Part shown: in pieces, positions 33,958-54,352 of the stretch | Numbering within the stretch: position 1 is the stretch's first letter | Layout of the letters: the number at the start of each line of letters is the position of its first letter | NCBI RefSeq assembly: GCF_000802245.2 | Contig: NZ_CP021080.1 | Coordinates: 992,001 to 1,056,000 of the forward strand | Direction of reading: 5' to 3' | Length of the DNA: 64,000 nucleotides | DNA from: Streptomyces pluripotens | Lineage (GTDB): Bacteria > Actinomycetota > Actinomycetes > Streptomycetales > Streptomycetaceae | Notes under the pieces: generated by a model | Seen by the model: the letters and a program-made list of their open reading frames with translations, nothing else | Database searches by the model: none | Told to the model about the DNA's origin: nothing | Made by a program: the position numbers and the translations under genes

Positions 33958-33995
33958 CACGGGTGTTTCACTACTCCGTTCAAGGTCGTACAGGA

Positions 33996-36317: not shown

Positions 36318-36365
36318 GACCACCACCTCCTCTGCTTCCGAGAGCTGCCTACGCGAGGCAGCATA

Positions 36366-36436
36366 GGACACATAGTCATGGGATGCAGAGAGTTGGGATA
36401 CATAGTCTCTGGATCTTGAGGCTTGGGACATATGAG
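36366..36436 (+). promoter_or_regulatory. three related boxes at exact 30-bp spacing upstream of the XRE gene
   Basis: ggacacatagtc starts at 36366, ggatacatagtc at 36396 and ggacatatgagc at 36426. The equal spacing puts them on nearly the same face of the helix. They end 13 nt before the XRE start codon and are likely operators for that regulator. Confidence 0.6.
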
Positions 36437-36448
36437 CTAGGGCTTGCC

Positions 36449-36709: not shown

Positions 36710-36716
36710 GGGCGGC

Positions 36717-38339: not shown

Positions 38340-38409
38340 CCGCTTGCCACTCCCGAAGCAGTGGTCACCCTCTGTCGGCCGTCGGACCGACCGCCCTACG
38401 CTTGCCACC

Positions 38410-39228
38410 ATGCCAACTACAGACGTGAGCGTCCGCACCCTCGACGGTCTCCACCTCGCCGGCACCTTGGTTGAGTCAGGACAGCCAACATCCCGAGCCG
38501 TGGTGCTCGTGCATGGTGGTGGCGTCACCCGCGAAGAGGGCGGCTTCTTCACACGGCTGGCGGCTGGCCTGGCCGACGCGGGCGTTGCCTCGCTTCGCTT
38601 CGACCTCCGCGGCCATGGACAGAGCGAGGGTCGCCAGGAAGAACTCACCCTGTCGGCCATCCTGAACGACATCCGCGTCGTGCTGGCACATGCCCGCGAA
38701 GCAACCGGCGCTCAGGAGGTCACGCTGCTCGGTGCCAGCTTCGGCGGCGGCATCTGCGCGTACTACGCCGCGCAGCGCCCGGATGACGTCTCCCGTCTGG
38801 TGCTCTTCAACCCCCAGCTCGACTACAAGAAGCGGACTATCGACAGCCGGGCGTATTGGGAGAACGACTACCTCCAGGAGGAAGCCGCACAGCAGTTGGC
38901 GTCGGAGGGCTTCATCCAGTTCACGCCGACGCTCAAGCACGGGCGGCCCATCTTCAACGAGGTGTTTTGGCTGCGGCCCCATGAGGCGCTCGGCGGCGTC
39001 CAAGCCCCGACGCTTATCGTGCATGGTACGAAAGACACCTTCGTGCCCATCGAGTCGTCACGGGCCGCAGTCGAGCAGTTCGGCGGTCCCTGCAAGCTCG
39101 TCGAGATCGAGGGCTCTCAGCACGGCTTCGCCGTGCACGACGACCCGCAGTACCTCGACCCCCAGAGCCAGGAGTGGCAGGCGTTCGTCATCCGTACCGT
39201 GGCCGAGTGGGTAACGACGCCGCTGTGA
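38410..39228 (+). CDS. alpha/beta hydrolase
   Basis: The 272-residue product has the alpha/beta hydrolase fold. The oxyanion motif is VLVHGGGVTREEGGF, the nucleophile serine lies in LLGASFGGG near residue 117, the acid is in VHGTKDTFVP and the histidine in GSQHGF. Such enzymes are esterases or acyl hydrolases, and the substrate is unknown. The ATG at 38410 has no clear ribosome site, so the message may be leaderless. Confidence 0.88.
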   Translation: MPTTDVSVRTLDGLHLAGTLVESGQPTSRAVVLVHGGGVTREEGGFFTRLAAGLADAGVASLRFDLRGHGQSEGRQEELTLSAILNDIRVVLAHAREATGAQEVTLLGASFGGGICAYYAAQRPDDVSRLVLFNPQLDYKKRTIDSRAYWENDYLQEEAAQQLASEGFIQFTPTLKHGRPIFNEVFWLRPHEALGGVQAPTLIVHGTKDTFVPIESSRAAVEQFGGPCKLVEIEGSQHGFAVHDDPQYLDPQSQEWQAFVIRTVAEWVTTPL

Positions 39229-39231
39229 CCG

Positions 39232-40836: not shown

Positions 40837-40882
40837 ATTGCCGCCGCTCCCGCCCTTGGTGCCCTCTGGCCATGCCTACCCA

Positions 40883-40934
40883 GCGTATTGCCACATACGG
40901 CCCCCGGGGGCAATACGCGGGACGTATATGTCCC
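40883..40934. promoter_or_regulatory. inverted repeats in the divergent region
   Basis: gcgtattgcc at 40883-40892 is inverted as ggcaatacgc at 40909-40918. Directly after it, gggac and gtccc (40919-40934) flank gtatat. These may be operators for the XRE/TPR regulator at 40836. Confidence 0.5.
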
Positions 40935-41031
40935 CATGCGCGGCCGTAGTTGGCCCGCCAACTGACCCCCACCAGGCTCGGGAGGCCCCGTTTACCCCCC
41001 AGCCGACACGGGGCGGCAAGGAGCCGACGCG

Positions 41032-41391
41032 ATGCCCCCAACACCCCGACTGGCCTACGGCTACCTCCGCGTGCTGCCAGGGCTCGGGATAGACGACGTG
41101 CTGCGTCTCCACCGTGACCTGGTGGCCTTCGCCGAGGCCCGAGGCTTTGTGCTCGCCGACGTGTTCATCGAGGCCCAGTGGCAGCAACTCAAGGCGTGGC
41201 ACGAGGTCGTGGTCCACTGCCACACGAGGAACGTACGCCACGTCGTCATGCCCTCGCCCGAACACCTGCACACGATCCCCGTCTTGGCCGAGCTCATGAA
41301 GGACGATGTCGAGCGGGAGATTGGTGGCACGCTGTGGCTCGCCGCGTCGCTCGAAACGACCGCCGCTCCCGAGCAGGAGGCACGGCCGTGA
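41032..41391 (+). CDS. small protein resembling a degenerate resolvase domain
   Basis: The 119-residue product starts with LAYGYLRVLPG, close to the YGYLRVS start of serine recombinase catalytic domains, but the catalytic serine is replaced by leucine. Later segments (VAFAEARGFVLADVFIE, HVVMPSPEHL) also follow that fold. It probably has no recombinase activity. AAGGAG precedes the ATG. Its stop overlaps the GTG of the next gene, so the two are coupled. Confidence 0.65.
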   Translation: MPPTPRLAYGYLRVLPGLGIDDVLRLHRDLVAFAEARGFVLADVFIEAQWQQLKAWHEVVVHCHTRNVRHVVMPSPEHLHTIPVLAELMKDDVEREIGGTLWLAASLETTAAPEQEARP

Positions 41392-41804
41392 ACGCCACCC
41401 CCTACACCAGCGAGCTGGAGCTTGCCGCCCAGGCCGACGCCGTTCGCTGGGGTCGTCGCCACACACGAGATGTCTTGTCCGCCTGGCGCTTGCCCGACGA
41501 CCGCATTGACGATGCCCAGTTGGCGGTCTCGGAGTTGGTCACCAACGCCGTGCGCTGCGTCGGCAACGCGTCGCTCGACGCCGTACCTCCTCGCATTCGG
41601 CTGACGCTGCACAAGGAGCCACACCGGCTCCTGATCTGGGTGGCCGACCCTGACCCCCGGCCGCCCGTTCTCAACGCCTCGCCTGCGGCTGGCGCTGAGA
41701 ACGGCCGAGGGCTGCTCATCTTGGAACGGATCACGAAAGAGTGGAGCTACTACTTTGTGCCGACCGGCGGCAAGGTGGTGTGGTGCTCGATTGGGCTGGG
41801 GTGA
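41388..41804 (+). CDS. ATP-binding protein, anti-sigma factor (RsbW-like) type
   Basis: The 138-residue product is a HATPase_c domain of the RsbW/SpoIIAB class common in Streptomyces. The N-box is LAVSELVTNAVRC, the G1 region is LLIWVADPDPRPP and the G2 region is GRGLLILERI. AGGAGG lies upstream of the overlapping GTG start. Proteins of this class bind sigma factors or anti-anti-sigma partners; the target here is unknown. Confidence 0.85.
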   Translation: MNATPYTSELELAAQADAVRWGRRHTRDVLSAWRLPDDRIDDAQLAVSELVTNAVRCVGNASLDAVPPRIRLTLHKEPHRLLIWVADPDPRPPVLNASPAAGAENGRGLLILERITKEWSYYFVPTGGKVVWCSIGLG

Positions 41805-41863
41805 ACGGGCCACCGCGTACGCGCCGGCCCTTGTCTTGATGACGGGGGCCGGGTTCGTTCGTG

Positions 41864-43072
41864 CTACGAACCGCTCGGTACTACTACGTGGTCCAACGGT
41901 GGCATAAAGATGGAAATGACTTGGTCAGCTACAACAGAAGTGTGTCCATCTGAGGATCGGTAGAGTTTTCCTGAGCCACAGTAGCTAGCATTAGTATTGC
42001 TCGCCGCGCAGTGGTGCTGGATAAGGGAAATTCTTGTTGCGTGGTTCAATTGGCGCACCATCATCTCAGTGCTGGTACCTTCCTTGACCCATCGGGTGCC
42101 ATCCAAACGCCACAGACTTGCAGGCATCACCGTCATATACGGGTTGCCAGAGCTTTGCTTCTTGCAGGTCCACGAGGTAACCGTTGCCCTGAGATGACCA
42201 TCTAGGCCCCACCACATATCTGAGGCTGAAAAACCGTTGCGGGAACCGGCGACGTAGCCAGGTGGGTAGGCGGCGGAGAAATCGGTCTCGACCATTTCGA
42301 ATGTCTTCGGATCGAAGATGGAGACACGAGAGGTGTTGGTGCAAATCCCCGGATTTTCGTCGGCTTTCAGAGCGATTTGGGCCGATCCATAGGCGGTGTG
42401 CTCGGCGGATGCCGCAAAAATATGAGAAAGACTGAAAGTTCCCCAGGTGAAAATGTCCGAGCCGTCCGCACCGAGCAGATACAGCTTCTCTTGGTCGTGT
42501 AGCTGCGTTTGTGTTGGGTCAGTTGCGTTGATAAGCACTCGACCCGAGGTAGCGCCAAGGATCTGATTGAACTGTGCTGGAAGTAGAGAGCTTGAGTCCA
42601 CCGGGATAGCAGTACTCGGCGCATCGAGGTTGAAGCGCATGAGTGTATCGCCGAGGGCGATTATTTCGTTCGCGCCGATTGCGGCAAAACTAGTGCAGCC
42701 AGGACATGAGACATGACCTACAGCTCCAGTATGCGTGTTGACGAACTTGATCTCTTGCTTCTTTGGGTTGCTGTCTGGATCAAAGAGCAGATCTGCTAGA
42801 AAAGCAACGTAGTCACCAGTAGGCGTCCACACGACCTGGTCTTCATCTGGATTGGCTGCTGTGAACTTACGTGGAGCCCGAGCGACTACCTGTGTGCCTC
42901 GCATGAGAACAAAAGCGCTGTCCGTTATGTAAGCGTAGGCAGGTCCGTCCGAGACGGTGGTATTGCTGTGAGCTTTCGCTTTATGGGCTTGTTGGTAGAG
43001 TATAAATACGGCCACACCGAAAGTCGCAAACCACAACGGAATAAGCAGTAGTAAGAGTTTCCTCCACGACAT
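41864..43072 (-). CDS. membrane-anchored protein, possibly beta-propeller-like
   Basis: The 402-residue product has one N-terminal membrane helix (LLLLLIPLWFATFGVAVFIL) and a large extracytoplasmic part. That part is rich in short beta-strand-like segments (for example QVVWTPTGDYVAFLADL), which resemble propeller blades. Cysteines occur in pairs, as expected for an exported protein. The sequence is AT-richer than the chromosome. It lies 20 nt after the next gene on the same strand and is probably cotranscribed with it. Confidence 0.65.
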   Translation of the reverse strand: MSWRKLLLLLIPLWFATFGVAVFILYQQAHKAKAHSNTTVSDGPAYAYITDSAFVLMRGTQVVARAPRKFTAANPDEDQVVWTPTGDYVAFLADLLFDPDSNPKKQEIKFVNTHTGAVGHVSCPGCTSFAAIGANEIIALGDTLMRFNLDAPSTAIPVDSSSLLPAQFNQILGATSGRVLINATDPTQTQLHDQEKLYLLGADGSDIFTWGTFSLSHIFAASAEHTAYGSAQIALKADENPGICTNTSRVSIFDPKTFEMVETDFSAAYPPGYVAGSRNGFSASDMWWGLDGHLRATVTSWTCKKQSSGNPYMTVMPASLWRLDGTRWVKEGTSTEMMVRQLNHATRISLIQHHCAASNTNASYCGSGKLYRSSDGHTSVVADQVISIFMPPLDHVVVPSGS

Positions 43073-43092
43073 GTGCGCTTCCTCACTCCACT

Positions 43093-44511
43093 CTACTTAT
43101 GCTTATACGTTGCCGGGTCAACCTTCTGCCATTCGCTCAATCCGTAGTACGGGCCATTGATGTACGTTGCCTGATACCCCGAGAAAGGCGCTCCCTCGAT
43201 TCGGGGTTTGGCAAGCGCTGTGAGTTCGAACGGCTTGCCGTGGTCATCAATGGTCTCTGTGAACGCACCGGAAGTGGTTGCGACAAGCATCTCGAACCTG
43301 AACGAGCAATCGTGTAGTTTGGTGAATGCCCCGATGCTCAGAGTCACAGATTCTCCGCGGGCCAGTGTGATGTGACGGCCGACGAAATAGTTGCTCTTGT
43401 ACGGTGTGCCGGCTCCGGATTCAGGACTGAAAGCGACCTTCTGAGGAATCGGGTCGGGAACGTCGAGATTAAACGCCATCCCAATGTTATCGCCTTCTCC
43501 CTGGCTGGGAGACGAAAAAATAGTCCCTCGAAGGGGCGCTCGGCATGTCGAGTTGACCGACATCCCCTGGACCGTGACTTCGGCAGATTCATTCCCACGC
43601 AGCGTGACCGTGGTGAAAGCAAAACCTACCTGGGCGCTTTGGCGACCGGTATACCATGAGCGGAAGGCTGTCGAGTTCGAGTACACGTTCTTGTTGAAGT
43701 TAACCAGCCCGGTCGATGTCAAGCTGAGTTTGTCCGGCAGAACGAAACTCATATCTCCTGGCTCGTTGTTGGCCAGAGGGCTCACGCTCTCGATTTGCAC
43801 AGGGGGTGATGATGAGGGCGCAGGACGAGGTTCTGAGGTTGACTGAGCTTTATTACCCGTGCGCTGGCCGAAGCTGGTGGTGAGTGTTGCAATGCCGACT
43901 GCGCTCGCCACAACGACAAGAGTAATTGCCGACAGCACAAGTGGGCGGATCTTTCGCTTTTGAGGTTTGGGGGCAGGCTCCGGGGTGGGTGATGGCGGAA
44001 TTTCTTGCAGTACGTCAACGGGGGCTACAATATCGGTATACCTTGCAAGGAAGATATCGAGTTCTTCCTTGAGTATGGGCGCGGGTTTGGATAGACCGAA
44101 GCTCACAAGATCGGGAACGATATCGATCGAAAATTTCTTACGGTTGGCTTCGTAGCTCCCGTGAAGAGGCTTATAGTTTCGCGTTGCTTCGTGACGCTCT
44201 TTCAGGTCGAGCCCTGCGAGTCCCAATGATTCAAGCCCTGGGCCAACTAGGTTAAAGCTTACCCGGGCAACAATTTGCGCTTTCGGATCGGCGAGCCGAC
44301 TAACAAGTCGTTCAAGCTGGATGGCCATCTTGGCGCAAACGACGTCGGGGGTGTCGTCGACGCCAATATCCCAATAAGAACGGAGGGAGTAATAGTCCGG
44401 CTTTTCCTCGAATGCCTTGCGCAGAGGACGTCGAATACCACGTCCTTTTGGCAAGTCCCTCAGCACGTTTTCGAGACTGGCTTTTATCGGTTGACGCTCT
44501 TCCTGGTTCAC
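43093..44511 (-). CDS. single-pass membrane protein with cytoplasmic N-terminal domain
   Basis: The 472-residue product has a cytoplasmic N-terminal region of about 190 residues, with a helical segment of residues 1-100 resembling an effector-associated or adaptor domain. A Pro-rich stretch leads to a membrane helix at about 195-217, and an extracytoplasmic domain of 250 residues follows. No catalytic motif is visible. With the downstream propeller-like protein it may form a membrane complex; this is inference. Confidence 0.6.
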   Translation of the reverse strand: MNQEERQPIKASLENVLRDLPKGRGIRRPLRKAFEEKPDYYSLRSYWDIGVDDTPDVVCAKMAIQLERLVSRLADPKAQIVARVSFNLVGPGLESLGLAGLDLKERHEATRNYKPLHGSYEANRKKFSIDIVPDLVSFGLSKPAPILKEELDIFLARYTDIVAPVDVLQEIPPSPTPEPAPKPQKRKIRPLVLSAITLVVVASAVGIATLTTSFGQRTGNKAQSTSEPRPAPSSSPPVQIESVSPLANNEPGDMSFVLPDKLSLTSTGLVNFNKNVYSNSTAFRSWYTGRQSAQVGFAFTTVTLRGNESAEVTVQGMSVNSTCRAPLRGTIFSSPSQGEGDNIGMAFNLDVPDPIPQKVAFSPESGAGTPYKSNYFVGRHITLARGESVTLSIGAFTKLHDCSFRFEMLVATTSGAFTETIDDHGKPFELTALAKPRIEGAPFSGYQATYINGPYYGLSEWQKVDPATYKHK

Positions 44512-44592
44512 AGCCCCCGCCCCCCAATGCGCTCGTCCCTGGTCGAAGAGTATAGAGACAGATCGGCGATCTCATGGGGCAATCGAACTATT

Positions 44593-44633
44593 GCATATAT
44601 ATGCATAAAATGTTATAAATATCGCATATATGG
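44593..44633 (+). promoter_or_regulatory. AT-rich promoter with palindrome gcatatatatgc
   Basis: The 12-bp palindrome gcatatatatgc (44593-44604) and a partial copy gcatatatgg (44624-44633) flank a -10-like tataaa (44614-44619). The ATG at 44630 lies inside the second copy, so the message may be nearly leaderless and the palindrome an operator. Confidence 0.5.
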
Positions 44634-45388
44634 AACATCTGCACCAACCAACACCAGGCGAGAGCCCAGTTGTGCGCCTCCAGGTCACAGCCGAAGTTGT
44701 CACCGATCCGGAAACGGCTCTTGCCAAACAGTTAGAAATCGCCGAAGTCCTTAAGGCCATCGGTGGCGTGGCCGTCCGGTTCGAGGTAGCCACGGTACAA
44801 CTCGACGACATACCCGAAGTGGCTGAGCCAGCAACAACCGAAGCACCTGCCTCACTGGATGAGGTCGAACGACGATATCGGCTCGGGTTACCAATTAAAA
44901 GTGCACTCTTAGAATTTACTGACCGCGGCAAACGTTTCAGAGATGGCGCGTTCAAGAACAGTGGAGTCGTTAACCTCGCCGACGTACTTGTCGTCGGGAA
45001 GCGCCAAGCATCTAACCTGCGCGAGGTCGGCCCGGGCGCCATCCGCGACTTACAGCTCCTGATTGACCGGGCACTCCCGGGCACCTCATGGGATGAAGAC
45101 CCAAAAATCGAGACGGCCGTGCTTCTCTGCCCCAGCCTGAACGAAGTGACGTCGGCAGTCCTCGGCATCGACAGTCTTGATCATCTTCGCATTCAGGAAA
45201 TTTTAAAACTTGGGGTATCAGGGATCGAAAAGATACCCGGCTTTCTGAATCCCAACTGGGCTTATGTTAATGAAGTAAGCCGTATGGAGCCCGAGAAACG
45301 AGCTCCATACATCTATCAGCGGGCTCAAGCCTACGCCGCCAAATTTCTCGCCGAACAAGCCCGCCAGCGACGGCAGCGCAGCGAGTAG
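44630..45388 (+). CDS. unknown protein with a helix-hairpin-helix region like the RNA polymerase alpha C-terminal domain
   Basis: The 252-residue product has an N-terminal region of about 80 residues and then NLADVLVVGKRQASNLREVG followed by PGAIRDLQLLIDRAL (about residues 105-140). This resembles the helix-hairpin-helix of the RNA polymerase alpha C-terminal domain. A second similar helix pair occurs near residues 185-205. The assignment is weak. It is divergent from the membrane-protein pair and directly precedes the repeat-rich region at 45.48 kb. Confidence 0.5.
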   Translation: MEHLHQPTPGESPVVRLQVTAEVVTDPETALAKQLEIAEVLKAIGGVAVRFEVATVQLDDIPEVAEPATTEAPASLDEVERRYRLGLPIKSALLEFTDRGKRFRDGAFKNSGVVNLADVLVVGKRQASNLREVGPGAIRDLQLLIDRALPGTSWDEDPKIETAVLLCPSLNEVTSAVLGIDSLDHLRIQEILKLGVSGIEKIPGFLNPNWAYVNEVSRMEPEKRAPYIYQRAQAYAAKFLAEQARQRRQRSE

Positions 45389-45476
45389 AGCAGGGCACGC
45401 CCAAAGTTACTCACCACCTTCGAGGCCCGGCCGACCTGTGTTCGCGCACGTCGTCTTGGTCGTTCCTGCCGCCCTC

Positions 45477-45550
45477 CCAGTTTTTTACCAGTTCAGCTTC
45501 TGAGCTGGTGTTTTGTGCTGGGAAAAAACTGGTCACTGGTCAATAACTGG
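45477..45550. repeat. cluster of nested inverted and direct repeats, candidate origin
   Basis: ccagttttttaccag (45477-45491) is inverted with one mismatch as ctgggaaaaaactgg (45518-45532). Inside it a small hairpin cagct/agctg (45494-45507) occurs. Two direct copies of actggtc follow at 45529-45542, then aactgg at 45545-45550. The 318-base gene-free stretch 45389-45706 containing it precedes the mobility gene chain, so it is a candidate transfer or replication origin or a complex promoter. Confidence 0.55.
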
Positions 45551-45706
45551 GACAAGGGCTTTCACGCTCGACACCACTCTTCGCACTCTGCTCTGCTTCT
45601 CTCATCGCCACCAAGCGACAGCCCCCAAGGCACGCACACCAAACGTGAAGGCCCTGGGAATGGCTTGCATATTGAGAACTCAACAGAGTGAAAGGAGGTC
45701 TCGCCC

Positions 45707-45991
45707 TTGAGCGAGATCATGAGGCGCAATGCGCTTCCACCTACGTCGCGTAGGACACGACAGATTGTCGCTTCGGCTTCCGAAGCGACGCTTGCCGAAC
45801 AGGTCGCCATGCGAGCCGTATCGGCAACAGCCGAGTACGGCATGAGCGAGGTGCTGTTCCTCAAGCAGACACAAGCAGCGCTTGAGCAGCAGTGCCCGGA
45901 TGCAGCGGAAGCCCTGGCCCTGATTGCCAATTCCGCCGCGTTGTCCATCGCGCAGCAGGTGCGGCGCTTCGGTCAGCAGATGAGCGGATGA
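45707..45991 (+). CDS. first small gene of the mobility gene chain
   Basis: The 94-residue, mostly helical product has no recognisable motif. The start is a TTG at 45707 with a perfect AAAGGAGGT seven bases upstream. The next gene overlaps its stop by 4 nt. Similar small genes cluster next to transfer genes in actinomycete plasmids. Confidence 0.65.
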   Translation: MSEIMRRNALPPTSRRTRQIVASASEATLAEQVAMRAVSATAEYGMSEVLFLKQTQAALEQQCPDAAEALALIANSAALSIAQQVRRFGQQMSG

Positions 45992-46194
45992 CTGCCGCTC
46001 TGCTGCTCTTGGTCGGGGTGGTGGCCGGCTGGGTGCTCCGGTCGGTCGTCGCCGCCAAGCAATCCGCACGCCGTCAGTGGCGTGCGCATGCGCTCGGTCT
46101 GCGACAGCAACAAGTCATGAGCGACATAGCTGCACAGCGTCGTAGGTCTGAAGAACAGATGCGACGCATTGTCTACCTGAAAGGTGGTTCGTGA
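45988..46194 (+). CDS. small membrane protein
   Basis: The 68-residue product begins with the hydrophobic AALLLLVGVVAGWVL and continues with a basic Gln/Arg-rich helix. The ATG overlaps the preceding stop (ATGA). It is the second member of the overlapping chain. Confidence 0.65.
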   Translation: MTAALLLLVGVVAGWVLRSVVAAKQSARRQWRAHALGLRQQQVMSDIAAQRRRSEEQMRRIVYLKGGS

Positions 46195-46355
46195 AGCACG
46201 ACCTCATAGTTCCGGCAATCATCGCTGGGGCGTATGCCTTCGGGCGCATCCAGCAATGGACCCGGAACCGCAGCGACCGCAAGACCACCAAGGCCATTGA
46301 GCACATCCGAGATGTGCTCAACAAGTCCAACGACAAGAAGGGAAAGCCCGAGTGA
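46191..46355 (+). CDS. 54-residue protein of the mobility gene chain
   Basis: GTG at 46191 overlaps the previous stop (GTGA) and has GAAAGGTGG upstream. The product has a short hydrophobic start (LIVPAIIAGAYAF) and a basic, charged tail ending KKGKPE. No family is recognised. Confidence 0.6.
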   Translation: MKHDLIVPAIIAGAYAFGRIQQWTRNRSDRKTTKAIEHIRDVLNKSNDKKGKPE

Positions 46356-46570
46356 GCACCACAACGCACACAGCGGTTGCCATACCGCTGGGACTGCTGG
46401 AGTCCAAGACCATCACGGTTCTGGTGGACTCGTTTCAGGCGGCCTTTGTGGCCGCCTACGGCGAGGAGAAGCAGCGCAAGCAGATCGCCAAAGCACGGCT
46501 GCTGGCCACGCTGCGCGGCCTGGACGAGTTCCGACACAGCGAGCACGAGCGGGAGTACCGCCCGGCGTGA
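46352..46570 (+). CDS. 72-residue protein of the mobility gene chain
   Basis: The GTG at 46352 overlaps the previous stop by 4 nt. The product is mixed helical with a conserved-looking FQAAFVAAYGEEKQ segment and a charged C-terminus. Function unknown. Confidence 0.6.
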   Translation: MSTTTHTAVAIPLGLLESKTITVLVDSFQAAFVAAYGEEKQRKQIAKARLLATLRGLDEFRHSEHEREYRPA

Positions 46571-46752
46571 ACCGTGGTGGCCCGTTGGATGGATGGAGAC
46601 AGCGCTTTATTCAAGCGCTGTCTCTGTTCCTCATTGTCTCGATTTTGGCACGCTGGATATTCGATCTCCTCGCGCCAATGCTCCCACTGCTCATACCGGC
46701 GGCGATCGGACTGGGTATTTGGCGTCTGGTACGTCGGCGACGGCAATGGTAA
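46567..46752 (+). CDS. small membrane protein at the end of the overlapping chain
   Basis: The GTG at 46567 overlaps the previous stop (GTGA). The 61-residue product has two hydrophobic stretches (FIQALSLFLIVSILA and LAPMLPLLIPAAIGLGIW) and ends with the basic RLVRRRRQW. It resembles the small spread-type membrane proteins of actinomycete plasmids in size and layout only. Confidence 0.62.
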   Translation: MNRGGPLDGWRQRFIQALSLFLIVSILARWIFDLLAPMLPLLIPAAIGLGIWRLVRRRRQW

Positions 46753-46776
46753 GTCGGGCAGGTCCGAGGTGTCGTT

Positions 46777-46890
46777 GTGAATAACACTCCGACTTTCTCG
46801 CTGCCCGACCCGCGCGCAAAACGAGCGCTTCAACAGGCTTGGCTGACCGTTTACTCGATCGAACCTTCGCTCGAATGCTCGACCGAGTAA
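46777..46890 (+). CDS. possible 37-residue protein
   Basis: GTG at 46777 is preceded by GAGGT at six bases. The frame encodes a polar peptide (NNTPTFSLPDPRAKRALQQA at the start) and ends with TAA at 46888-46890. It fits the series of tiny genes but overlaps nothing that supports it; it could be chance. Confidence 0.35.
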   Translation: MNNTPTFSLPDPRAKRALQQAWLTVYSIEPSLECSTE

Positions 46891-46979
46891 AGGATTTTCA
46901 AGATCATCTCCATGCCCTAAATGTATACATAACTCCGGGGGCAACCTGCCATCTGGAGCGAAAAAAGAAAGGAGAGCAT

Positions 46980-47570
46980 GTGGAAGAAAATGCAACAGCA
47001 AAGCAGGTGACCCCCACCCGGTTCCGGACGATCTTGGCGGACCCGCCGTGGTCGCATGACCAAAGAGGTGCAAAAGGTGCAGAGCGGCATTACTCGCTCA
47101 TGGATCTGAGCAAGATCAAGGGGATGCCGGTCGCCGATCTGGCGGAAGAGAACAGTCATTTGTGGCTTTGGGTCACAAATAGCTCACTCCGTGACGGCTA
47201 CGACGTTGCCGCAGCCTGGGGCTTCGTCCCCAAGTCGATCTTGACCTGGGTGAAGTTTCGTCTCGGTTTGGGCAGCACGCTCCGAAATGCTTCCGAGCAT
47301 GTGCTGTTTTGCACGCGGGGCAAGGCTCCGGTCAAGTTCAAGTCACAGCCGACGTGGTTCAACGCGCCGGTCACTGAGCACTCCAGGAAGCCCGACGAGC
47401 AGTACGCCCTCATCGAGCGACTGTCGGATGGTCCATATTTGGAGCTATTTGCCCGCAGGCGTCCCCCGAGCAATCGAGGATGGTCAATCTGGGGTAATGA
47501 GGTCGATTCCGACTTGGTCATCCCCAGCTATCCCGTGCCGAGTGACCGGCACCACCAGCGAAACACCTAA
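46980..47570 (+). CDS. MT-A70 family adenine methyltransferase
   Basis: The 196-residue product carries the MT-A70 catalytic motif DPPW in ILADPPWSHDQ, preceded by the FRTI strand. The later region has HLWLWVTNSSL and HVLFCTRGKAPV typical of the family. Bacterial members are usually DNA N6-adenine methyltransferases, and here it may modify the element to escape host restriction. The GTG at 46980 follows AAAGGAGAG; the frame is open from 46839. Confidence 0.85.
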   Translation: MEENATAKQVTPTRFRTILADPPWSHDQRGAKGAERHYSLMDLSKIKGMPVADLAEENSHLWLWVTNSSLRDGYDVAAAWGFVPKSILTWVKFRLGLGSTLRNASEHVLFCTRGKAPVKFKSQPTWFNAPVTEHSRKPDEQYALIERLSDGPYLELFARRRPPSNRGWSIWGNEVDSDLVIPSYPVPSDRHHQRNT

Positions 47571-47589
47571 CCGCGGAAGGAGGTGGTCC

Positions 47590-47763
47590 ATGACCAAACG
47601 CAAGACAAGCAGCAAGCGGCCAGAACGCCGCTACGTCGTCCACGGTGTCCGGCGGGAGATGCCAGATCTCCGGAAGCTCAGCAAGGCCCTCCTGGCAGTG
47701 GTGCTCGCCGAACAACAGCGCACCGCGGATGCCGTTGAACCCGAGGAAGGTGTTCGCGGATGA
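47590..47763 (+). CDS. small basic protein preceding the ATPase
   Basis: The 57-residue product starts with a very basic segment (MTKRKTSSKRPERRY) and continues with one amphipathic helix. GGAAGGAGGT precedes the ATG. Its stop overlaps the ATPase start (ATGA), so the two are made together. It may act as an accessory factor of the ATPase. Confidence 0.65.
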   Translation: MTKRKTSSKRPERRYVVHGVRREMPDLRKLSKALLAVVLAEQQRTADAVEPEEGVRG

Positions 47764-49982
47764 CTGCTGCCTTGGGCAAAGCCTTGCAGTTTGCCCGACT
47801 GCACCTGCCGCGCCCCCTCGATGCCGATGCCGTGCTCGCCCTCTTGGGCCGGCTGGCGCCAGATCGCCAATCGGGGCACCTCGTGCTTGAACTTCACGCT
47901 GAGAGCGGCAGCCAGGTGCGCTGCCTCCTCGGTGCCCGACCGGTAGACATGGCGCGGCTGGGGCATCTGCTCGGGCACTTCCTGCCCGGCTCCTTGCTCG
48001 AAGTCACGCCGGAGCGGCCTCCGGCTCGTCCGCCCGTCACGGCCGCTGGTCGCCTGCGCGTCCGGCCTTCGTATCTGCCCTTGAGCATGGACGCACCCGA
48101 GAATGTCTCCCGGGCGGTGCTGTCGGCAGTGTCCATACCGCTCGCGCCAGACGAGGCGTTGGTCGTACAGGTCATCCTCGGTGAACGGATTTTGCCGCGT
48201 GTGCTACCGGCGGAATTCCAGGACCCAAGCCTGCCGCTCGCACAACTGCTTCTGGTCGGCACCAGGCCGGCGGGGGCGGAGCTTCGCGGACGCCTACGCA
48301 AGCGTGTGGAACACCCCGGCTTCATGGCCACAATCCGCGTCGGTGCGGCAGCTGCCACGCGGCAGCGTCGGACCAGCCTGCTCCTCGGCGTGTTGTCCGG
48401 CCTGACCGTGGCCCAAGGTCCGGGCACTCGTATTCGGCTCGTCCACGACAGCGCGGAGCGCCTCAACGAGGGCCGTCGGCCGTGGTTGTGGCCACTCAAG
48501 CTGTCCGTGCCAGAGTTGGTTGGGTTGTTGGCCTGGCCGCTTGGCGAGGAGGAGTTGCCAGGGTTGCCACCGCTGCACCCGAAGCCGCTGCGCGCATCGG
48601 CACGGGTACACCAGGGCGAGCGGGTCTTCGCCCAGAGCGCTGCGCCAGGCGACACGCGCCGGATCGGGATATCGGCCAGAGACCAGACGTTTCACGGAGT
48701 GGCCTACGGCCCCTCCGGGTCGGGTAAGACTAATGTCCTACTTCGCCTCATCCTCGCGGACATAGCAGCAGGTCGGCCGGTCATCGTCCTTGATCCAAAA
48801 CAGCAGCTCATCGACTCGATCTTGGCGCGCGTGCCCGCCGACCAGGTTGATCGGATCGTGGAGCTCAACCCTGCTGACGCTTCGCCTGTTTCGTTCAATC
48901 CGCTGGACGTTGGCCAGCGTGACCCCGACGTGATCGTTGACGGCCTATTGGCCGTTTTCGCAGCAGTCTTCGCAGACGGCTACGGCCCACGTACAGCGGA
49001 CATCTTCAGCTCGGGCTTGCGCACGCTGGCCCGCGGCAGTCTTCCGAACGCACCGGCGACTCTGACAGATTTGCCCCGGTTGTTCACCGACCCGGCGTTC
49101 CGCCGTCCCTACGTCGGCCGCGTGCAAGGCGACCTAGCGCTGGCTGGGTTCTGGTCCTGGTACGACGATCTCGCTCCGGCCAACCAGGCCGCCATCCTGG
49201 CAGCCCCTATGAATAAACTACGACAATTCCTGCTGCGGCCAGCGGTGGTGCGGATGCTCGACCAGCGGTCGGGGAAGTTTCGGCTGCGGGATGTCTTCCG
49301 TACCAACAAGGTCGTGCTCGTAGGGCTCAACGAGGGGCTCATCGGGCCGGGGGTGGCATCACTCATCGGTAGCCTCGTGATCGCGGAGGTCTGGCAGGCC
49401 GTCCAGGAGCGGGCCGGTGAACCGGGTGCACACCTGCGGCCCGGCACGGTGTATGTGGATGAAGCACCCCGGTTTGTACACCTGCCGACTTCACTGGCCG
49501 ACGCTTTGGCCATTTCGCGAAGTTTGTCCGTCGGCTGGTTCCTCGCCGCACAGTTCAGGAGCCAATTCCCGGCGGAGCTGCGGACGGCGGTGGACATAAA
49601 CGCACGGAGCAAGGTCGTCTTTGCGACCGAGGCCGACGATGCGCGCGACCTGGCGACCAAGCTGGCGCCGGAGCTGGAGCCTGTCGACTTCATGTCGCTG
49701 CGTCGCTTTGAGGCGTACGTGAATCTTGTGGCGGATGGTGCGCCTTCCGGTTGGGCGCTGGTCAAAACGCTGCCGCCACCGCCGGTCACTGGCGACGCCG
49801 AAGCGGTTCGGGCTATTGCCCGCACCAACTGGAGTCCCCAGCCGAGCACGTCAACGGGCGGGCCTGCTGCCGGAGTCCAAGGCGCTGTCGAGCCAGGGCT
49901 GTTGCAAAGTCTTTTGATCTTGCGTGGGAGCGCTGGTCAGGCAAGGCCGAGGAGGTCCAGTGGTCGGCGGAAGCCGTCGTAG
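47760..49982 (+). CDS. VirD4/FtsK-HerA-like DNA-pumping ATPase, C-terminus replaced by IS sequence
   Basis: The 740-residue product has an N-terminal region of about 300 residues of unknown fold, then a RecA-like motor domain. Walker A is GPSGSGKT at 317-324, VIVLDPKQQLID follows, and Walker B is VYVDEA at 564-569. Such ATPases drive DNA transfer as coupling proteins. The last 29 residues come from an IS element: removing the IS and one 8-bp duplicate restores a frame with 15 other codons (PPQIGRKRRTKPAEG) and a stop at 51286-51288, for 726 residues. Confidence 0.8.
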   Translation: MTAALGKALQFARLHLPRPLDADAVLALLGRLAPDRQSGHLVLELHAESGSQVRCLLGARPVDMARLGHLLGHFLPGSLLEVTPERPPARPPVTAAGRLRVRPSYLPLSMDAPENVSRAVLSAVSIPLAPDEALVVQVILGERILPRVLPAEFQDPSLPLAQLLLVGTRPAGAELRGRLRKRVEHPGFMATIRVGAAAATRQRRTSLLLGVLSGLTVAQGPGTRIRLVHDSAERLNEGRRPWLWPLKLSVPELVGLLAWPLGEEELPGLPPLHPKPLRASARVHQGERVFAQSAAPGDTRRIGISARDQTFHGVAYGPSGSGKTNVLLRLILADIAAGRPVIVLDPKQQLIDSILARVPADQVDRIVELNPADASPVSFNPLDVGQRDPDVIVDGLLAVFAAVFADGYGPRTADIFSSGLRTLARGSLPNAPATLTDLPRLFTDPAFRRPYVGRVQGDLALAGFWSWYDDLAPANQAAILAAPMNKLRQFLLRPAVVRMLDQRSGKFRLRDVFRTNKVVLVGLNEGLIGPGVASLIGSLVIAEVWQAVQERAGEPGAHLRPGTVYVDEAPRFVHLPTSLADALAISRSLSVGWFLAAQFRSQFPAELRTAVDINARSKVVFATEADDARDLATKLAPELEPVDFMSLRRFEAYVNLVADGAPSGWALVKTLPPPPVTGDAEAVRAIARTNWSPQPSTSTGGPAAGVQGAVEPGLLQSLLILRGSAGQARPRRSSGRRKPS

Positions 49983-51232
49983 GACATCTCGCGGAGTCCG
50001 GCCGCGATGTTCGCGTGGCCGGAGGCTCGCAGTGTGTTGATCGCGAAGCTGCGGAGGGTGGCCATGTTGTCCGGGCCGTGTCCGGTTCGGACCGTGGAGG
50101 CGTCCTCGGCGAAGGCGGTGTCTCGGACGAAGTGGAGACGGTTCTCGATGATCCACTGCGAACGGACGATCTTCGCGATGCGCTCGGGGGAGGCTTCGCG
50201 GCTGGCCAGGTCCGTGATGACGTAGACCGTCTCGCGGCTGCGTTTGCCGGTCTTGCGCTGAGTGCGGTGCCGGACGATCTTCGCGACCTGGACCGCGTGG
50301 GGGAAGTCGACGCCGAGGTCGGTGATGGTCAGGGCCTGCACGACGCGGGTCTCCAGGCGTCCGTGGGCATCGGTGCGGTCGTAGAACTTCGCACTCGCCT
50401 TCTCCCAGGGCAGGGTGGCGAGTTGGCGGTGCAGGTTCTTCTGGTTGCGCTTCACGGTGAAGGCGTAGTGCGCCTTCTTCTCCTCGACGAGGAACCGGGC
50501 GTGATCGCGCTGGCAGTGCAGGGCATCCGCGGAGACCGTGACGCCGGTCAGGTCGTAGGGCGCCAGCAAGGCGTCAAAGCAGGTGATTTCGTTCGTCTTG
50601 CCGGGGACCCGCAGTTGGGTGACGGTCAGGCCGGCGCCGGTGATCGCGGCCAGCAGATGGGCGGCCGGGATCTCGCCGTGGCGCGAGCCGCGGGCGCTCT
50701 TGCCGTCCACCGCGAGGGTGTCCGCCCCGGCCGGATCGGATCCGAGCAGGTCGGCGAGCCCGCCGGGGCAGGCGGCGTTCAGGACGCGGCGGATGGTCGC
50801 CGCACTCGGCGCGATGCGCACGTTCAAGACCGTCGTGGCGCGGGCGCCGAGCCGGGCGAGCGTGTCCTGCGGGGCGCTCGCTGCCCACTGGCCGATCGCG
50901 GCGAAGGAACGGGCTCCGGTCAGCACCGCCGAGCAGGCCACCAGCAGCACGCTCACGAACGAGTGACGCTTCCCGCGCCGATGCCGGGGGTCGGCCAAGG
51001 TCCGCAGCCGCAGGGCCAGCGGTCCGATCAACCGGTGCTGACGGGTGGGCGACTTGATCAGACAGACGGTGGCAGACTGACGGCACATCGAAGCTCCGGG
51101 CGGTGCGGGCGACTTGATCGGTCACCGGCATCAACCGGAGCTTCGTTGCGTACGGACCGGGCCGACCGCGCATCGTCATACCGTCGCGACCTGCGCACTC
51201 ACGTGATCACCGGGACTTTGAAACCGCCCTGG
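49893..51232. mobile_element. ISAs1-like insertion sequence, 1340 bp
   Basis: The IS is bounded by imperfect inverted repeats ccagggctgttgcaaagtc at the left and the complement of gactttgaaaccgccctgg at the right (51214-51232). An 8-bp target duplication ctgtcgag lies at 49885-49892 and 51233-51240. It contains one intact transposase gene. Clean duplications and an intact gene suggest a recent insertion. Confidence 0.88.
49937..51088 (-). CDS. ISAs1-family transposase
   Basis: The 383-residue DDE transposase shows an N-terminal SFAAIGQWA region, the first catalytic Asp in TLAVDGKSARGS, the second in TVSADALHCQ, and the Glu region in WIIENRLHFVRDTAF. These are typical of the ISAs1 group. The frame is complete. 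Its 3' end overlaps the truncated ATPase frame on the other strand. Confidence 0.88.
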   Translation of the reverse strand: MCRQSATVCLIKSPTRQHRLIGPLALRLRTLADPRHRRGKRHSFVSVLLVACSAVLTGARSFAAIGQWAASAPQDTLARLGARATTVLNVRIAPSAATIRRVLNAACPGGLADLLGSDPAGADTLAVDGKSARGSRHGEIPAAHLLAAITGAGLTVTQLRVPGKTNEITCFDALLAPYDLTGVTVSADALHCQRDHARFLVEEKKAHYAFTVKRNQKNLHRQLATLPWEKASAKFYDRTDAHGRLETRVVQALTITDLGVDFPHAVQVAKIVRHRTQRKTGKRSRETVYVITDLASREASPERIAKIVRSQWIIENRLHFVRDTAFAEDASTVRTGHGPDNMATLRSFAINTLRASGHANIAAGLREMSYDGFRRPLDLLGLA

Positions 51233-51288
51233 CTGTCGAGCCTCCGCAGATCGGGCGCAAGCGACGCACGAAGCCCGCCGAGGGATAG

Positions 51289-51587
51289 CCGTGGGTCGCG
51301 AATAGCGCTCGGGGTTGACCCTGTCTTCGCCCGTCTGTCCGCTGCTCTCTCCACGTTGGAGCAGACAGCCGCATTCGCCCAGCTCGACGCCTGTTCACCG
51401 GCAGATGCCGGAGGGGACTCAGAGCGTCTTCAGTCGTCCAATCCGCACCCCCGGCCCGGCAGGCCGGAGGAACAGCGAAGCGGTCCATGAACCGTTTTCC
51501 TGCGCGTGAGATCGGCGACGGGCGGCGCTCCTGGCGGAACGGCCACCCTGCGTGAAAACCCTACATTTTTTAAAGAAGGGAGAACGA
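51289..51587. other. region upstream of the replication-relaxation gene
   Basis: About 300 bases follow the ancestral ATPase stop. No convincing gene is seen. The last 40 bases turn AT-rich (ctacattttttaaag) and probably hold the promoter of the next gene. Confidence 0.45.
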
Positions 51588-52439
51588 ATGAAGAATAATG
51601 ACATCTCAAGCCTCCTTGAACTACTTTCCGACCGTGACCTATCCATCCTTGAATCACTGCGCACACACCGCGTTTTGACCACCGCTCTTATCCGGCGGCT
51701 CCATTTCCCGATCACTGGAGAGCCCACAGAACCAGGCACCAACAAAGGCCACGCCACCGAAATGGCCGCGAGCGTCGCCACCATCCGAGTCCTGACGAGG
51801 CTGGAGTCGCGTCGCCTCATTGCTCGGCTCAGTCGGCGGATCGGGGGAGTGCGTGCCGGTAGCAGTGGCATCTCCTGGCAACTGGGCGCCAGTGGTGAAC
51901 GGCTGCTGCGGGCACGACATGCCGACCCGGCACGACGGCGTTACAGCGAGCCGTCACCGAGCTTCATAGCGCACACCTTGGCGGCTGCTGACCTCGCGAT
52001 CCGGCTGTACGAGCTGGCCCGTGCGGGCGTGATCGAGCTGCTGGCCTTGGAAGCGGAGCCGGAGGCCTGGCGCACCTTCCTGTCGGCACATGGGGCCCGC
52101 CAGTGGCTCAAGCCTGACTTGTTCGCGGTCACGGCCGGCGGAGACTACGAGCACCATCTATTCATCGAGGCAGATTGTGCGACAGAGCACGCGCCGGTCA
52201 TCGTGCGCAAGGCACTCCAATACCAGCAGTACGCCAGGGCGGGCATCCACCAACAGGAGCACGGGTTGTTTCCGGCCGTGGTCTGGGTGGTGCCAGATGC
52301 CAAGCGGCAGAACGCCATCCGGGCGGCACTGGAAAGCGAGCCACGGCTCCGGGAGCCGGTGACCGCCGGGTTGTTTCAGGTGGTGACGAGTGAGGAATTT
52401 CCAGCGCTTATAACAAGCGCTGGACTGGCCAGCCCCTAA
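51588..52439 (+). CDS. replication-relaxation family protein
   Basis: The 283-residue product fits the replication-relaxation family found in actinomycete plasmids and integrative elements. The N-terminal winged-helix part reads LSDRDLSILESLRTHRVLTTALIRRLHF. The C-terminal part has KPDLFAV, FIEADCATEHAPVIVRKALQYQQY and FPAVVWVVPD, which resembles a nuclease-type fold (D...E.D...K). The ATG at 51588 follows GAAGGGAGA. It may start replication or process DNA for transfer, but the mechanism is not established. Confidence 0.8.
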   Translation: MKNNDISSLLELLSDRDLSILESLRTHRVLTTALIRRLHFPITGEPTEPGTNKGHATEMAASVATIRVLTRLESRRLIARLSRRIGGVRAGSSGISWQLGASGERLLRARHADPARRRYSEPSPSFIAHTLAAADLAIRLYELARAGVIELLALEAEPEAWRTFLSAHGARQWLKPDLFAVTAGGDYEHHLFIEADCATEHAPVIVRKALQYQQYARAGIHQQEHGLFPAVVWVVPDAKRQNAIRAALESEPRLREPVTAGLFQVVTSEEFPALITSAGLASP

Positions 52440-52453
52440 ACGGGCTTGGCCAG
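52425..52453 (+). terminator. terminator after the replication-relaxation gene
   Basis: ctggccagccc at 52425-52435 pairs with gggcttggccag at 52442-52453, with one bulged base. A second small stem ccagcgctt/aagcgctgg lies just upstream at 52401-52423. Confidence 0.6.
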
Positions 52454-52530
52454 CCAAAATGGCCCTCGGTAATTGGCCATAACGGAGTTAAAATAGGACT
52501 GCCAAATACCCGGAAACAAGGAGGAATTGA

Positions 52531-54321
52531 ATGAAGCAAAAGCAAAAGGCCGCTCAACGAGTCACTGGCGACGACTACGTAGCGTATCTACGCGTCTCCA
52601 CCAAGGGACAGGTCAACACCGACTACAACCCTGAGGGGCTGTCACTCCCGGCCCAGCGAGAGAAGGTTGAGGAGCGAGGCCGCGAGTTGGGCTCCGTCAA
52701 GGCCGCCGAGTTCGTGGACCCCGGGCGCACTGCCCGCACGATCGACCAGCGCCCCGAGTTCCAACAGATGATCGCCTACCTGCGCGAACACCCCAACGTG
52801 CGCTACGTCATCGTCTACATGCTGAGCCGGTTCGCCCGGAACCGGCTGGATGACGCGATCATGGTGGCGGCTCTGGAGCAACTCGGCGTCAAGCTGATCT
52901 CCGCCGTCGAGAAGAACATCGACGACACCCCGGCTGGACGGATGCTCCACGGCTTTCTCGCCGTAGTCAACGAGTACGTCTCCAACCAGAGTGCCGAGGA
53001 CGTCAAGTACAAGATGGGGCAGAAGGCCAAGAACGGCGGCACGATCACCCGGGCGCCAGTCGGCTACCTGAACACCATCGAGCACATCGAGGACCGCCGG
53101 GTCCGGACCGTGATCATCGACCCAGTACGCGGCCCGCTCATCCGCACCGCCTTCGAGCTGTACGCCACCGGCGAGTACACCCTCGCCGACCTGGCCGATG
53201 AGCTCTACGAGCGGGGCCTGCGGATGGTGCGCAACGCCAAGTACCCGGAGCGCGGCATCTCGCCGAACCGCCTGGCCGTAGCCATCCGGGATGACTACTA
53301 CACGGGGTGGATCACCTACGAGGGCGAGAAGTTTCGGGGACGCCACAAGCCGCTCATCTCGGAAGACGTCTTCGACCGGGTGCAGGACATCGCCAACAGC
53401 CGCACCCAAGCCCAGGAGCTACGGCGTGTCCACCACCACGAGCTGAAAGGCTCGCTGTTCTGTGGCTCCTGCCTGCGTCGTCACGGCGAACGCCGCCGCA
53501 TGATCCTGAGCCACGCCACCAATCGGCATGGCAACACCTACCGGTACTTCTTCTGCACCGGCCGCTACAGCCACACCTGCGAGCTGCCCTACGTCCCGCT
53601 CGGGCGGGTCGAGGAAGCTGTCGAGGCCCACTACGCGACTGTCCGGTTCACGCCCGAGTTCACGAGCGCGATGCGTGCCGACCTGGCTGCCATGCTGGAC
53701 GAGCAGCAGAGCACGACCAAGCTCCTCCATGCCCAGCTCACCAAACAGCTTCGTGAGCTCGACACCAAGGAGACCAACCTCATCGATCTGGCCGCCGACG
53801 GCACACTGCCACAGGGCAAGATCAAGGCCAGGCTGCGGGAGATCACCCGGCAGCGGGACCGTCTCACCGGCCGGTTGCAGGACACCGACCAGGATCTCAG
53901 CGTCACGGCAGAGATCATCGAGACGTGCTTGCAGCTCCTCGCGGACCCGCAAGCGCTCTACCAGCGCTGCGACGACCAGCAGCGCCGCCGGCTGAACCAA
54001 GCTCTCTTCGAGGAGCTGTACATCCATGAGGAACCGGACGGTGAGCTGCGGGTTGGTCACCAGCTCAAGGAGCCGTTCGACACCCTGCACGTGGCCCAGA
54101 ACAGTGGCCCCAAGCCCACAGACGGCCCAGCGGCCCCCGGTAGCCCCCATGCCGCCGTGCGTGCCCCCAAACGCACACAGCGCCCTCCCCAGGTGGGGGC
54201 GGGCGCTGCCAGGCACCAAACAGGGACCGCCCTGGCGGACGGCCCCTGGAAGGTAACGGGTTCCAATGAACTTCTTATGGTGGGCGATACTGGGTTCGAA
54301 CCAGTGACCTCTTCGGTGTGA
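52531..54321 (+). CDS. large serine recombinase (integrase), C-terminus changed by integration
   Basis: The 596-residue product has the serine recombinase catalytic domain, with Ser23 in YLRVSTKGQ and SRFARNRLDDA following. Next come the recombinase domain and a zinc ribbon (CGSC at 311-314, CTGRYSHTC later), then a coiled-coil region at about 390-470. Residues up to T587 are element-encoded; the last nine after the core come from the antisense of tRNA-Val. AAGGAGG precedes the ATG. In the excised form the frame would continue into the HTH ORF at 31776-32199, giving 727 residues. Confidence 0.9.
   Translation: MKQKQKAAQRVTGDDYVAYLRVSTKGQVNTDYNPEGLSLPAQREKVEERGRELGSVKAAEFVDPGRTARTIDQRPEFQQMIAYLREHPNVRYVIVYMLSRFARNRLDDAIMVAALEQLGVKLISAVEKNIDDTPAGRMLHGFLAVVNEYVSNQSAEDVKYKMGQKAKNGGTITRAPVGYLNTIEHIEDRRVRTVIIDPVRGPLIRTAFELYATGEYTLADLADELYERGLRMVRNAKYPERGISPNRLAVAIRDDYYTGWITYEGEKFRGRHKPLISEDVFDRVQDIANSRTQAQELRRVHHHELKGSLFCGSCLRRHGERRRMILSHATNRHGNTYRYFFCTGRYSHTCELPYVPLGRVEEAVEAHYATVRFTPEFTSAMRADLAAMLDEQQSTTKLLHAQLTKQLRELDTKETNLIDLAADGTLPQGKIKARLREITRQRDRLTGRLQDTDQDLSVTAEIIETCLQLLADPQALYQRCDDQQRRRLNQALFEELYIHEEPDGELRVGHQLKEPFDTLHVAQNSGPKPTDGPAAPGSPHAAVRAPKRTQRPPQVGAGAARHQTGTALADGPWKVTGSNELLMVGDTGFEPVTSSV
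54279..54290. repeat. attR core
   Basis: ggtgggcgatac at the right junction is also the 3' end of tRNA-Val(CAC). The element supplies a following tgg (54278-54280 on the plus strand), so the tRNA gene now encodes CCA. The left junction shows that the original flank read CCG. Confidence 0.8.
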
Positions 54322-54352
54322 ACGAAGCGCTCTCCCACTGAGCTAATCGCCC
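54281..54352 (-). tRNA. tRNA-Val(CAC)
   Basis: The 72-nt cloverleaf has the acceptor stem GGGCGAT/ATCGCCC, D-arm GCTCAGTGGGAGAGC, anticodon loop TTCACAC with anticodon CAC, and T-arm CTGGTTCGAACCCAG. It is the integration site of the element, whose sequence restores the last 12 bases. Confidence 0.95.

What the first reader, a model, noticed from the sequence alone, without database searches (positions are those of the whole stretch)
52531..54321. Integration splits the integrase: the att core lies inside its reading frame, and excision would restore a 727-residue protein with an HTH domain
Seen directly: the core ggtgggcgatac occurs at 31764-31775 and 54279-54290. The integrase frame reads it as V-G-D-T from 54280, and the left-end ORF reads it in the same phase from 31765. 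Joining the ends gives 583 integrase residues plus the 144 residues of the left ORF, with no stop, ending at 32199 just before a good terminator. The left ORF encodes two helix-turn-helix motifs of the kind fused to recombinases. In the integrated state the integrase instead ends with the antisense of tRNA-Val, and the HTH part is left without its start; a GTG at 31915 with AAAGGT upstream might still make it alone. So the element would have two forms of integrase: a full one in the circle, where integration is needed, and one lacking the HTH domain in the chromosome. That could be a built-in switch of direction or activity, comparable in logic to phages whose attP lies in the repressor gene.
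Basis: partly seen in the sequence, partly recalled or inferred. Interest (0 to 1): 0.96.

Follow-up and report, generated by a model that had tools for sequence, protein, structure and literature searches.

The report
Integrase that cuts off its tail
In a Streptomyces bacterium and some thirty relatives, the gene for the enzyme that inserts a mobile element into a tRNA or similar RNA gene lies in two pieces at two distant places, typically the element's two ends, so that inserting itself likely cuts a DNA-binding tail off the enzyme and leaving the chromosome would restore it, which may act as a built-in direction switch.

Summary
A 22.5-kb element (31764-54290) sits at the 3' end of tRNA-Val. 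Its large serine integrase reads through the att core into antisense tRNA; the other end carries, in the same phase, a 144-codon frame with two helix-turn-helix (HTH) motifs. Comparison shows an architecture, not an accident. In 65 of 81 integrase loci the gene runs antisense into a tRNA or tmRNA gene. Of 35 same-contig integrase/HTH pairs, 34 could be anchored at an in-frame GTG, and the next six bases match within pairs beyond all 20,000 shuffles. Uninterrupted integrase-HTH genes exist. The HTH half is under purifying selection. The two element arms, compared as separate strings, form a dyad whose outer motif recurs in the tRNA T-loop exactly 5 bp nearer the centre, as published for attP and attB of a serine integrase. 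So attP lies inside the integrase gene, and the T-loop is the likely target motif. The logic has precedents (Mx8, SSV: tyrosine integrases); my searches found none for serine integrases. That the tail switches direction is untested, and 15 of 82 genome handles, including a whole clade, showed no HTH half.

The parts
31764..54290 (.). integrated element between the two core copies (about 22.5 kb)
   Evidence: core repeats; G+C falls to 54-67% inside against about 70% outside; unoccupied site in relatives
52531..54321 (+). large serine integrase, integrated form, 596 aa: 583 codons before the core, then 13 codons of core and antisense tRNA-Val
   Evidence: Pfam Resolvase and Recombinase above cut-off, Zn ribbon just below it (24.9 against 25.3 bits); phrog_95 integrase
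31765..32199 (+). severed 3' part of the integrase gene: 144 codons with tandem HTH (HTH_23, HTH_38)
   Evidence: homology to tails of uninterrupted integrases; dN/dS 0.14-0.38
54279..54290 (+). att core copy at the integrase end (tRNA-Val 3' end)
31764..31775 (+). att core copy at the HTH end
54258..54268 (+). left attP arm motif, 15-25 bp from the dyad centre at 54283
   Evidence: dyad over 31 loci; window arms pair at 8 of 11 positions
31783..31793 (+). right attP arm motif, 15-25 bp from the same centre (31768 in this copy)
54293..54303 (+). attB arm motif: antisense T-loop of tRNA-Val, the attP arm motif 5 bp nearer the centre
54278..54352 (-). tRNA-Val(CAC), target gene, complete after integration
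32218..32256 (+). terminator-like stem-loop behind the HTH part
   Evidence: one found, 0.9 expected in shuffles
51552..52439 (+). Replic_Relax protein upstream of the integrase
   Evidence: Pfam PF13814
47760..49982 (+). T4SS-DNA_transf-type ATPase, likely transfer protein
   Evidence: Pfam PF02534

Best explanation
This is an integrated element whose large serine integrase gene contains the element's own attP, so that integration at the 3' end of tRNA-Val likely cuts a helix-turn-helix tail off the enzyme and excision would join the two parts again into one 727-residue protein. Shown by sequence: two in-phase pieces at the two ends, the same arrangement in relatives at many tRNA and tmRNA genes, uninterrupted homologues, a dyad attP centred on the junction, and the attP arm motif recurring 5 bp nearer the centre in the tRNA T-loop. 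Inferred: in the circle the full protein carries out attP x attB recombination, its zinc-ribbon domain reading the arm motif, which in attB is the universal T-loop; that would explain how one family reaches many tRNA genes. The cut enzyme keeps the catalytic, recombinase, zinc-ribbon and coiled-coil regions, so it likely stays active and carries out excision with a directionality factor. Inferred and untested: the tail is an extra DNA-binding module that favours integration, and its loss helps to lock the integrated state until excision is triggered. My odds: split gene with attP inside 0.95; T-loop as attB motif 0.85; truncated enzyme still active 0.65; tail favours integration 0.45.
For: Frames and core. 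Natural uninterrupted genes: P0051 (750 aa) and P0080 (734 aa) with all domains plus HTH; P0048, P0241, P0242 partial; a 780-codon frame in L041/L181; an N-terminally lost copy in L170. RNA gene overlapping the integrase end, antisense, in 65 of 81 loci. HTH halves in 67 of 82 genome handles. In 34 anchored same-contig pairs the junction codon is GTG on both sides and the next six bases match at 139 of 204, against a mean of 96 and a maximum of 124 in 20,000 shuffles. dN/dS of the HTH half 0.14-0.38. Dyad at one centre: 0.53 complementarity against 0.17-0.32 at the 25 other centres and 0.27 for the chromosome arms. Shift of exactly 5 bp between attP arms and T-loop: 0.64 and 0.56, against at most 0.41 and 0.35 at other shifts, as published for LI integrase (PMC3783163, passages). 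Unoccupied site in 15 of 23 relative loci. Solved integrases align with P0051 only up to residue 534, before the junction near residue 608.
Against: No excision product, expression or activity data. 15 of 82 genome handles gave no HTH half at E 1e-8, including the Actinoplanes/Nonomuraea-type clade that enters tmRNA or tRNA-Ala. An unanchored longest-match test gave the same phase in only 15 of 37 pairs, about chance, because the shared core is short outside the tRNA-Val group, where 7 of 8 agree. Anchors were picked by patterns, so GTG in frame is partly by construction. Only one attB arm carries the motif; the arm downstream of the tRNA shows none. Shuffled pairs already reach 0.48 in the dyad test because the arms are conserved across elements. 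Some pairs are 87-252 kb apart and may belong to different elements.
Confidence: 0.72

Rival explanations
1. Self-inactivation: the cut integrase is dead or nearly so, and excision needs a complete integrase from another copy in the cell, as proposed for archaeal SSV-type integrases.
For: Archaeal precedent (PMC8371274, passages). Some genomes carry several HTH halves (for example G214, G163, G185, G191) and the window's own genome has a second such integrase, so a helper is plausible. The tail gained from the target varies greatly between loci, as if unselected.
Against: Unlike SSV, the part kept includes the catalytic domain and every region aligned to solved serine integrases. For Mx8 a review reports that the truncated integrase stays active with changed specificity (PMC6070905, passages).
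Confidence: 0.25
2. The HTH tail does not steer recombination: it is a regulator, for example a repressor of the integrase or transfer genes present only in the circle, or the split merely follows from keeping attP and integrase as one compact module.
For: HTH_23/HTH_38 also occur in plain transcription regulators; purifying selection on the half fits any role in the circle. A clade without a detectable tail suggests that it is dispensable for the basic reaction.
Against: The tail is always found as the end of the integrase frame in the uninterrupted genes seen, not as a free gene.
Confidence: 0.25
3. The HTH half is made as a separate protein in the integrated state, from GTG 31915 or from the core GTG 31765, and acts on the element from there.
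For: GTG 31915 is in frame with AAAGG upstream; gene callers predict such short forms (94-144 aa).
Against: The core GTG has no ribosome-binding site here, no promoter-like site was found in 31600-32400 by a sigma-70-type scan, and the sequence upstream of the half is chromosomal and differs from locus to locus.
Confidence: 0.12
4. Coincidence or debris: the HTH ORF is unrelated, or a leftover of an earlier element at the same tRNA.
For: Long open frames are common at this G+C (14% of positions). Integrase and HTH half have different histories: against L003 the integrase differs at 9% of synonymous sites and the HTH half at 56%, so halves do re-assort.
Against: Repeated in-frame pairing across many loci, uninterrupted homologues, dyad arms shared between the two ends.
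Confidence: 0.03

Closest known systems
Myxococcus phage Mx8 (and Mx9) integrase
   Same: Bacterial; attP lies inside the int coding sequence and integration gives int a new 3' end; the review says the altered integrase is not inactivated but changed (PMC6070905, passages; original papers not held).
   Different: Counted among the tyrosine integrases in PMC4383910 (passages); here a large serine integrase that loses a tandem HTH tail, in many elements and targets.
SSV-type (suicidal) archaeal integrases
   Same: att site within the integrase gene, gene split on integration, often at tRNA genes (PMC8371274, passages).
   Different: Tyrosine enzymes, and the separated piece carries the catalytic domain; here the catalytic part stays whole. 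The review says such recombinases are found exclusively in archaea.
Large serine integrases (phiC31, Bxb1, A118/LI)
   Same: Domain order, dyad attP, arm motif 5 bp nearer the centre in attB (PMC3783163, passages).
   Different: In this family attP is inside the gene, the target is the end of tRNA or tmRNA genes, and there is an HTH tail with no counterpart in the solved chains found.
Ralstonia filamentous phage phiRSM and mycobacterial AICEs
   Same: Serine recombinases that enter the 3' end of a tRNA gene (PMC3816273, PMC3218068, passages).
   Different: phiRSM has a small serine recombinase and attP between two ORFs; the AICE paper's passages do not mention a split gene, and I did not examine those elements.

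Membership tests
large serine integrase | Resolvase catalytic domain followed by Recombinase and zinc-ribbon domains | tested here: met
   Resolvase 7e-26, Recombinase 8e-11, Zn ribbon 2.7e-5 (24.9 bits, just under the 25.3 cut-off); phrog_95
large serine integrase | long coiled-coil helices inside the zinc-ribbon region | tested here: met
   model of homologue P0051, helices 405-452 and 458-499; the window's own protein was not folded
large serine integrase | dyad attP with outer motif, shifted 5 bp inward in attB | tested here: met
   but only one attB arm shows the motif
large serine integrase | site-specific recombination activity | not testable with these tools
   no experiment
SSV-type suicidal integrase | tyrosine recombinase | tested here: not met
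   serine recombinase families only
SSV-type suicidal integrase | att site inside the integrase gene, gene split when integrated | tested here: met
Mx8-type integrase | attP in int; integration replaces the C-terminus | tested here: met
Mx8-type integrase | altered integrase keeps activity with changed specificity | not testable with these tools
   no experiment
actinomycete integrative and conjugative element (AICE) | integrase, replication protein and FtsK-type TraB | tested here: inconclusive
   Replic_Relax and a T4SS-DNA_transf ATPase found, no FtsK_SpoIIIE hit among the 20 proteins scanned

The most novel reading that the evidence does not exclude
A widespread class of actinobacterial serine integrases carries its own direction factor as an HTH tail that the integration reaction physically cuts off, making insertion self-locking, and uses the universal tRNA T-loop as its attB motif, so that the same enzyme can enter almost any tRNA or tmRNA gene.
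Probability: 0.35. Interest if true: 0.95.

Novelty: new variant of a known kind. Interest (0 to 1): 0.87.

Why it matters
[quoted passage not shown] already softened by PMC3218068). Directionality of serine integrases is an open and practically important question; a natural enzyme that changes its own C-terminus by the reaction it performs offers a direct test. If the T-loop is the target motif, the family would be a source of integrases for tRNA genes in many hosts. It also shows why annotations of these proteins end in antisense tRNA and why the HTH halves appear as orphan genes.

Tried and rejected
Unanchored longest-common-match test of the two ends: same phase in 15 of 37 pairs, about chance; replaced by anchoring on the junction codon, whose shuffled-pair control does not depend on the anchor. 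A loose pattern for antisense tails in the 120 listed homologues (101 hits) was dropped because it also hit unrelated stretches. The count of GAAC at the T-loop position (73 of 73) is largely forced by the search pattern and is not used as evidence. Plasmid and phage collections: no relative above 60% identity, one weak HTH match on a Microbacterium plasmid (not followed). Viral contigs: none confirmed. The tRNA-Pro target of L016 rests on an 84-nt ARAGORN call and is doubtful. Matching contig lengths (seven lengths) suggested pairing early; one of them (211704) has an integrase junction VELRG beside a half starting VGD. Rows dropped: of 37 pairs, two of three for L047 were not carried on; of 35, L047/L137 could not be anchored; the dyad test used one pair per integrase, 31. 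At least three genomes were searched under two handles (G011/G156, G014/G152, G083/G157). Three paper searches for prior reports under different wordings found nothing closer; most subscription papers are not in that library.

Full report
The element. The window lies in a 7.35-Mb single-contig genome. Two genomes counted as its genus mates (G011, G083) have contigs of exactly the lengths of those of S. pseudovenezuelae and S. humi, so the genus is Streptomyces. Between the core copies lie 22.5 kb of lower G+C with a Replic_Relax protein, a T4SS-DNA_transf ATPase, an MT-A70 methyltransferase and the integrase. I saw no drug-resistance family in the proteins scanned with Pfam, NCBIfam and PADLOC; an alpha/beta hydrolase at 38344 matches macrolide esterase models far below their cut-offs.

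The junction. The integrase has 583 codons before GTG 54280; the left frame has 144 codons from GTG 31765; both are free of stops. In relatives the site is unoccupied: of 23 loci fetched around the neighbouring exonuclease gene, 15 have that gene, tRNA-Val and the right flank next to each other (two of them with only about 50 matched flank bases), 2 hold an HTH half instead, and 6 are unclear.

Relatives of the two pieces. Of 846 homologues of the integrase the best 120 were listed; of 213 homologues of the HTH half the best 120. Integrase homologues commonly end in antisense tRNA; HTH halves commonly begin with V and have N eight residues later. Uninterrupted proteins that hold both parts: P0051 and P0080 complete, P0048, P0241 and P0242 partial. 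In genomes: a 780-codon frame with no tRNA beside it (L041/L181, from a MAG labelled Saccharibacteria) and a copy in Prauserella flavalba that has lost its N-terminal part but runs unbroken across the junction (L170). A search with the tail of P0051 over the protein database gave only P0051, P0241 and P0242, so uninterrupted forms are rare among deposited sequences, as expected if most genomes hold the integrated state.

Targets. A scan of genome contigs returned 80 named loci, kept from 107 confirmed. With the window, 65 of 81 have a tRNA or tmRNA gene overlapping the integrase end in antisense: Ala 36, Val 12, tmRNA 8, Arg 5, and one each Pro, Lys, Met, Leu (the Pro call is doubtful). Of the 16 without, some end at a contig edge, some show the antisense motif without an ARAGORN call, and some have no such tail. 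On a tree of 62 integrases the target changed at least 15 times (least possible 7; shuffled mean 25.5). Identical integrases occur at two tRNA-Ala genes of different anticodon (L029 CGC, L030 GGC).

Pairs. The HTH profile found a half in 42 of 44 and 25 of 38 genome handles (L035 was not held). Handles without one are G159, G181, G194, G200-G202, G204, G206-G209, G211, G219, G222, G225: several form the clade of L057, L060, L066-L069, L079, L082. I matched halves to integrases by contig and strand and tested 35 pairs, some with two halves for one integrase; distances run from about 6 kb to 252 kb, and the far ones (L014, L021, L030, L056) may not be one element. In 34 the junction could be anchored; both codons are GTG. 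GTG is the antisense of tRNA bases 72-74, which is why the residue is invariant (V584). The next six bases agree at 139 of 204 within pairs, 96 on average and 124 at most in 20,000 shuffles.

Selection. For seven tRNA-Val elements, 21 comparisons, dN/dS is 0.12-0.40 for the integrase and 0.14-0.38 for the HTH half (synonymous differences reach 0.70, so values are rough). The half is maintained as protein. The window and L003 have nearly identical integrases but diverged HTH halves, so the halves re-assort between elements, as described for archaeal self-splitting integrases (PMC8371274, passages).

The attachment site. I compared the arm left of the junction in the integrase piece with the reverse complement of the arm right of the junction in the HTH piece, 31 pairs. 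Complementarity peaks at one centre, the base after the GTG (window 54283): 0.533, against 0.171-0.323 at the 25 other centres and 0.273 for the two chromosome arms; shuffled pairs give 0.482 with sd 0.012, since the arms are alike in all elements. The motif, GGTTCnAG on the left, lies 15-25 bp from the centre. In the window 8 of 11 positions pair, in the unbroken genes L170 and L181 9 of 11. The arms match the tRNA T-arm at a shift of exactly 5 bp (left 0.639, next best 0.408; right 0.563, next best 0.352). For LI integrase the zinc-ribbon motif covers positions 16-24 of attP and lies 5 bp nearer the centre in attB (PMC3783163, passages). This independent agreement places attP at the junction and makes the T-loop the likely attB motif. 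The other attB arm, downstream of the tRNA, shows no such motif.

Mechanism. The model of P0051 (mean pLDDT 79, pTM 0.51) has the usual domains, then a poorly ordered linker around the junction, then well-predicted helices 653-737. Structures found by sequence align no further than residue 534, and the best Foldseek matches are serine integrase complexes. So the integrated form keeps the regions known to be needed and loses only the tail. I take it as most likely active in excision; the tail would add DNA binding in the circle and favour integration. None of this is tested. Review passages on Mx8 say that there the altered integrase keeps activity with changed specificity.

Literature. Seen as passages: PMC8371274, PMC3218068, PMC4383910, PMC6070905, PMC3783163, PMC3816273, PMC12884075, PMC9513070, PMC10654092, PMC12924846. 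In none of the passages did I see a serine integrase whose gene contains attP. Searches. Absence from that library is no proof of novelty.

Noticed in passing
G000:C1:4274672-4276108 (L090), outside the window: A second integrase of this kind in the same genome, 37% identical, ending in an antisense-tRNA-like tail (VDLRGFEPLAPSMRTRC...), so the genome likely holds a second such element.
   Followed up: partly
G214:C92, G163:C101 and C18, G185:C46, G191:C5: Several HTH halves within tens of kilobases on one contig, as if several such elements or remnants had piled up.
   Followed up: no
L170 (Prauserella flavalba): An integrase copy that lost its N-terminal part but kept the unbroken junction and HTH tail inside the chromosome, with no antisense-tRNA tail.
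   Followed up: partly
window 32986-33960, minus strand: Protein with matches to PADLOC candidate defence models PDC-M48B (E 6e-20); possible defence cargo near the left end.
   Followed up: no
window 39232-40836, minus strand: NsdA-family TPR-like regulator with HTH, above the NCBIfam cut-off.
   Followed up: no
window 32338-32721, plus strand: 127-aa protein just behind the terminator of the HTH part, no family in Pfam, PHROGs or NCBIfam; an untested candidate for a regulator or directionality factor.
   Followed up: no
window against L003/L109: Integrase end 91-98% alike but HTH end only 79%, and homology along the element in separate blocks: mosaic elements with re-assorted halves.
   Followed up: partly
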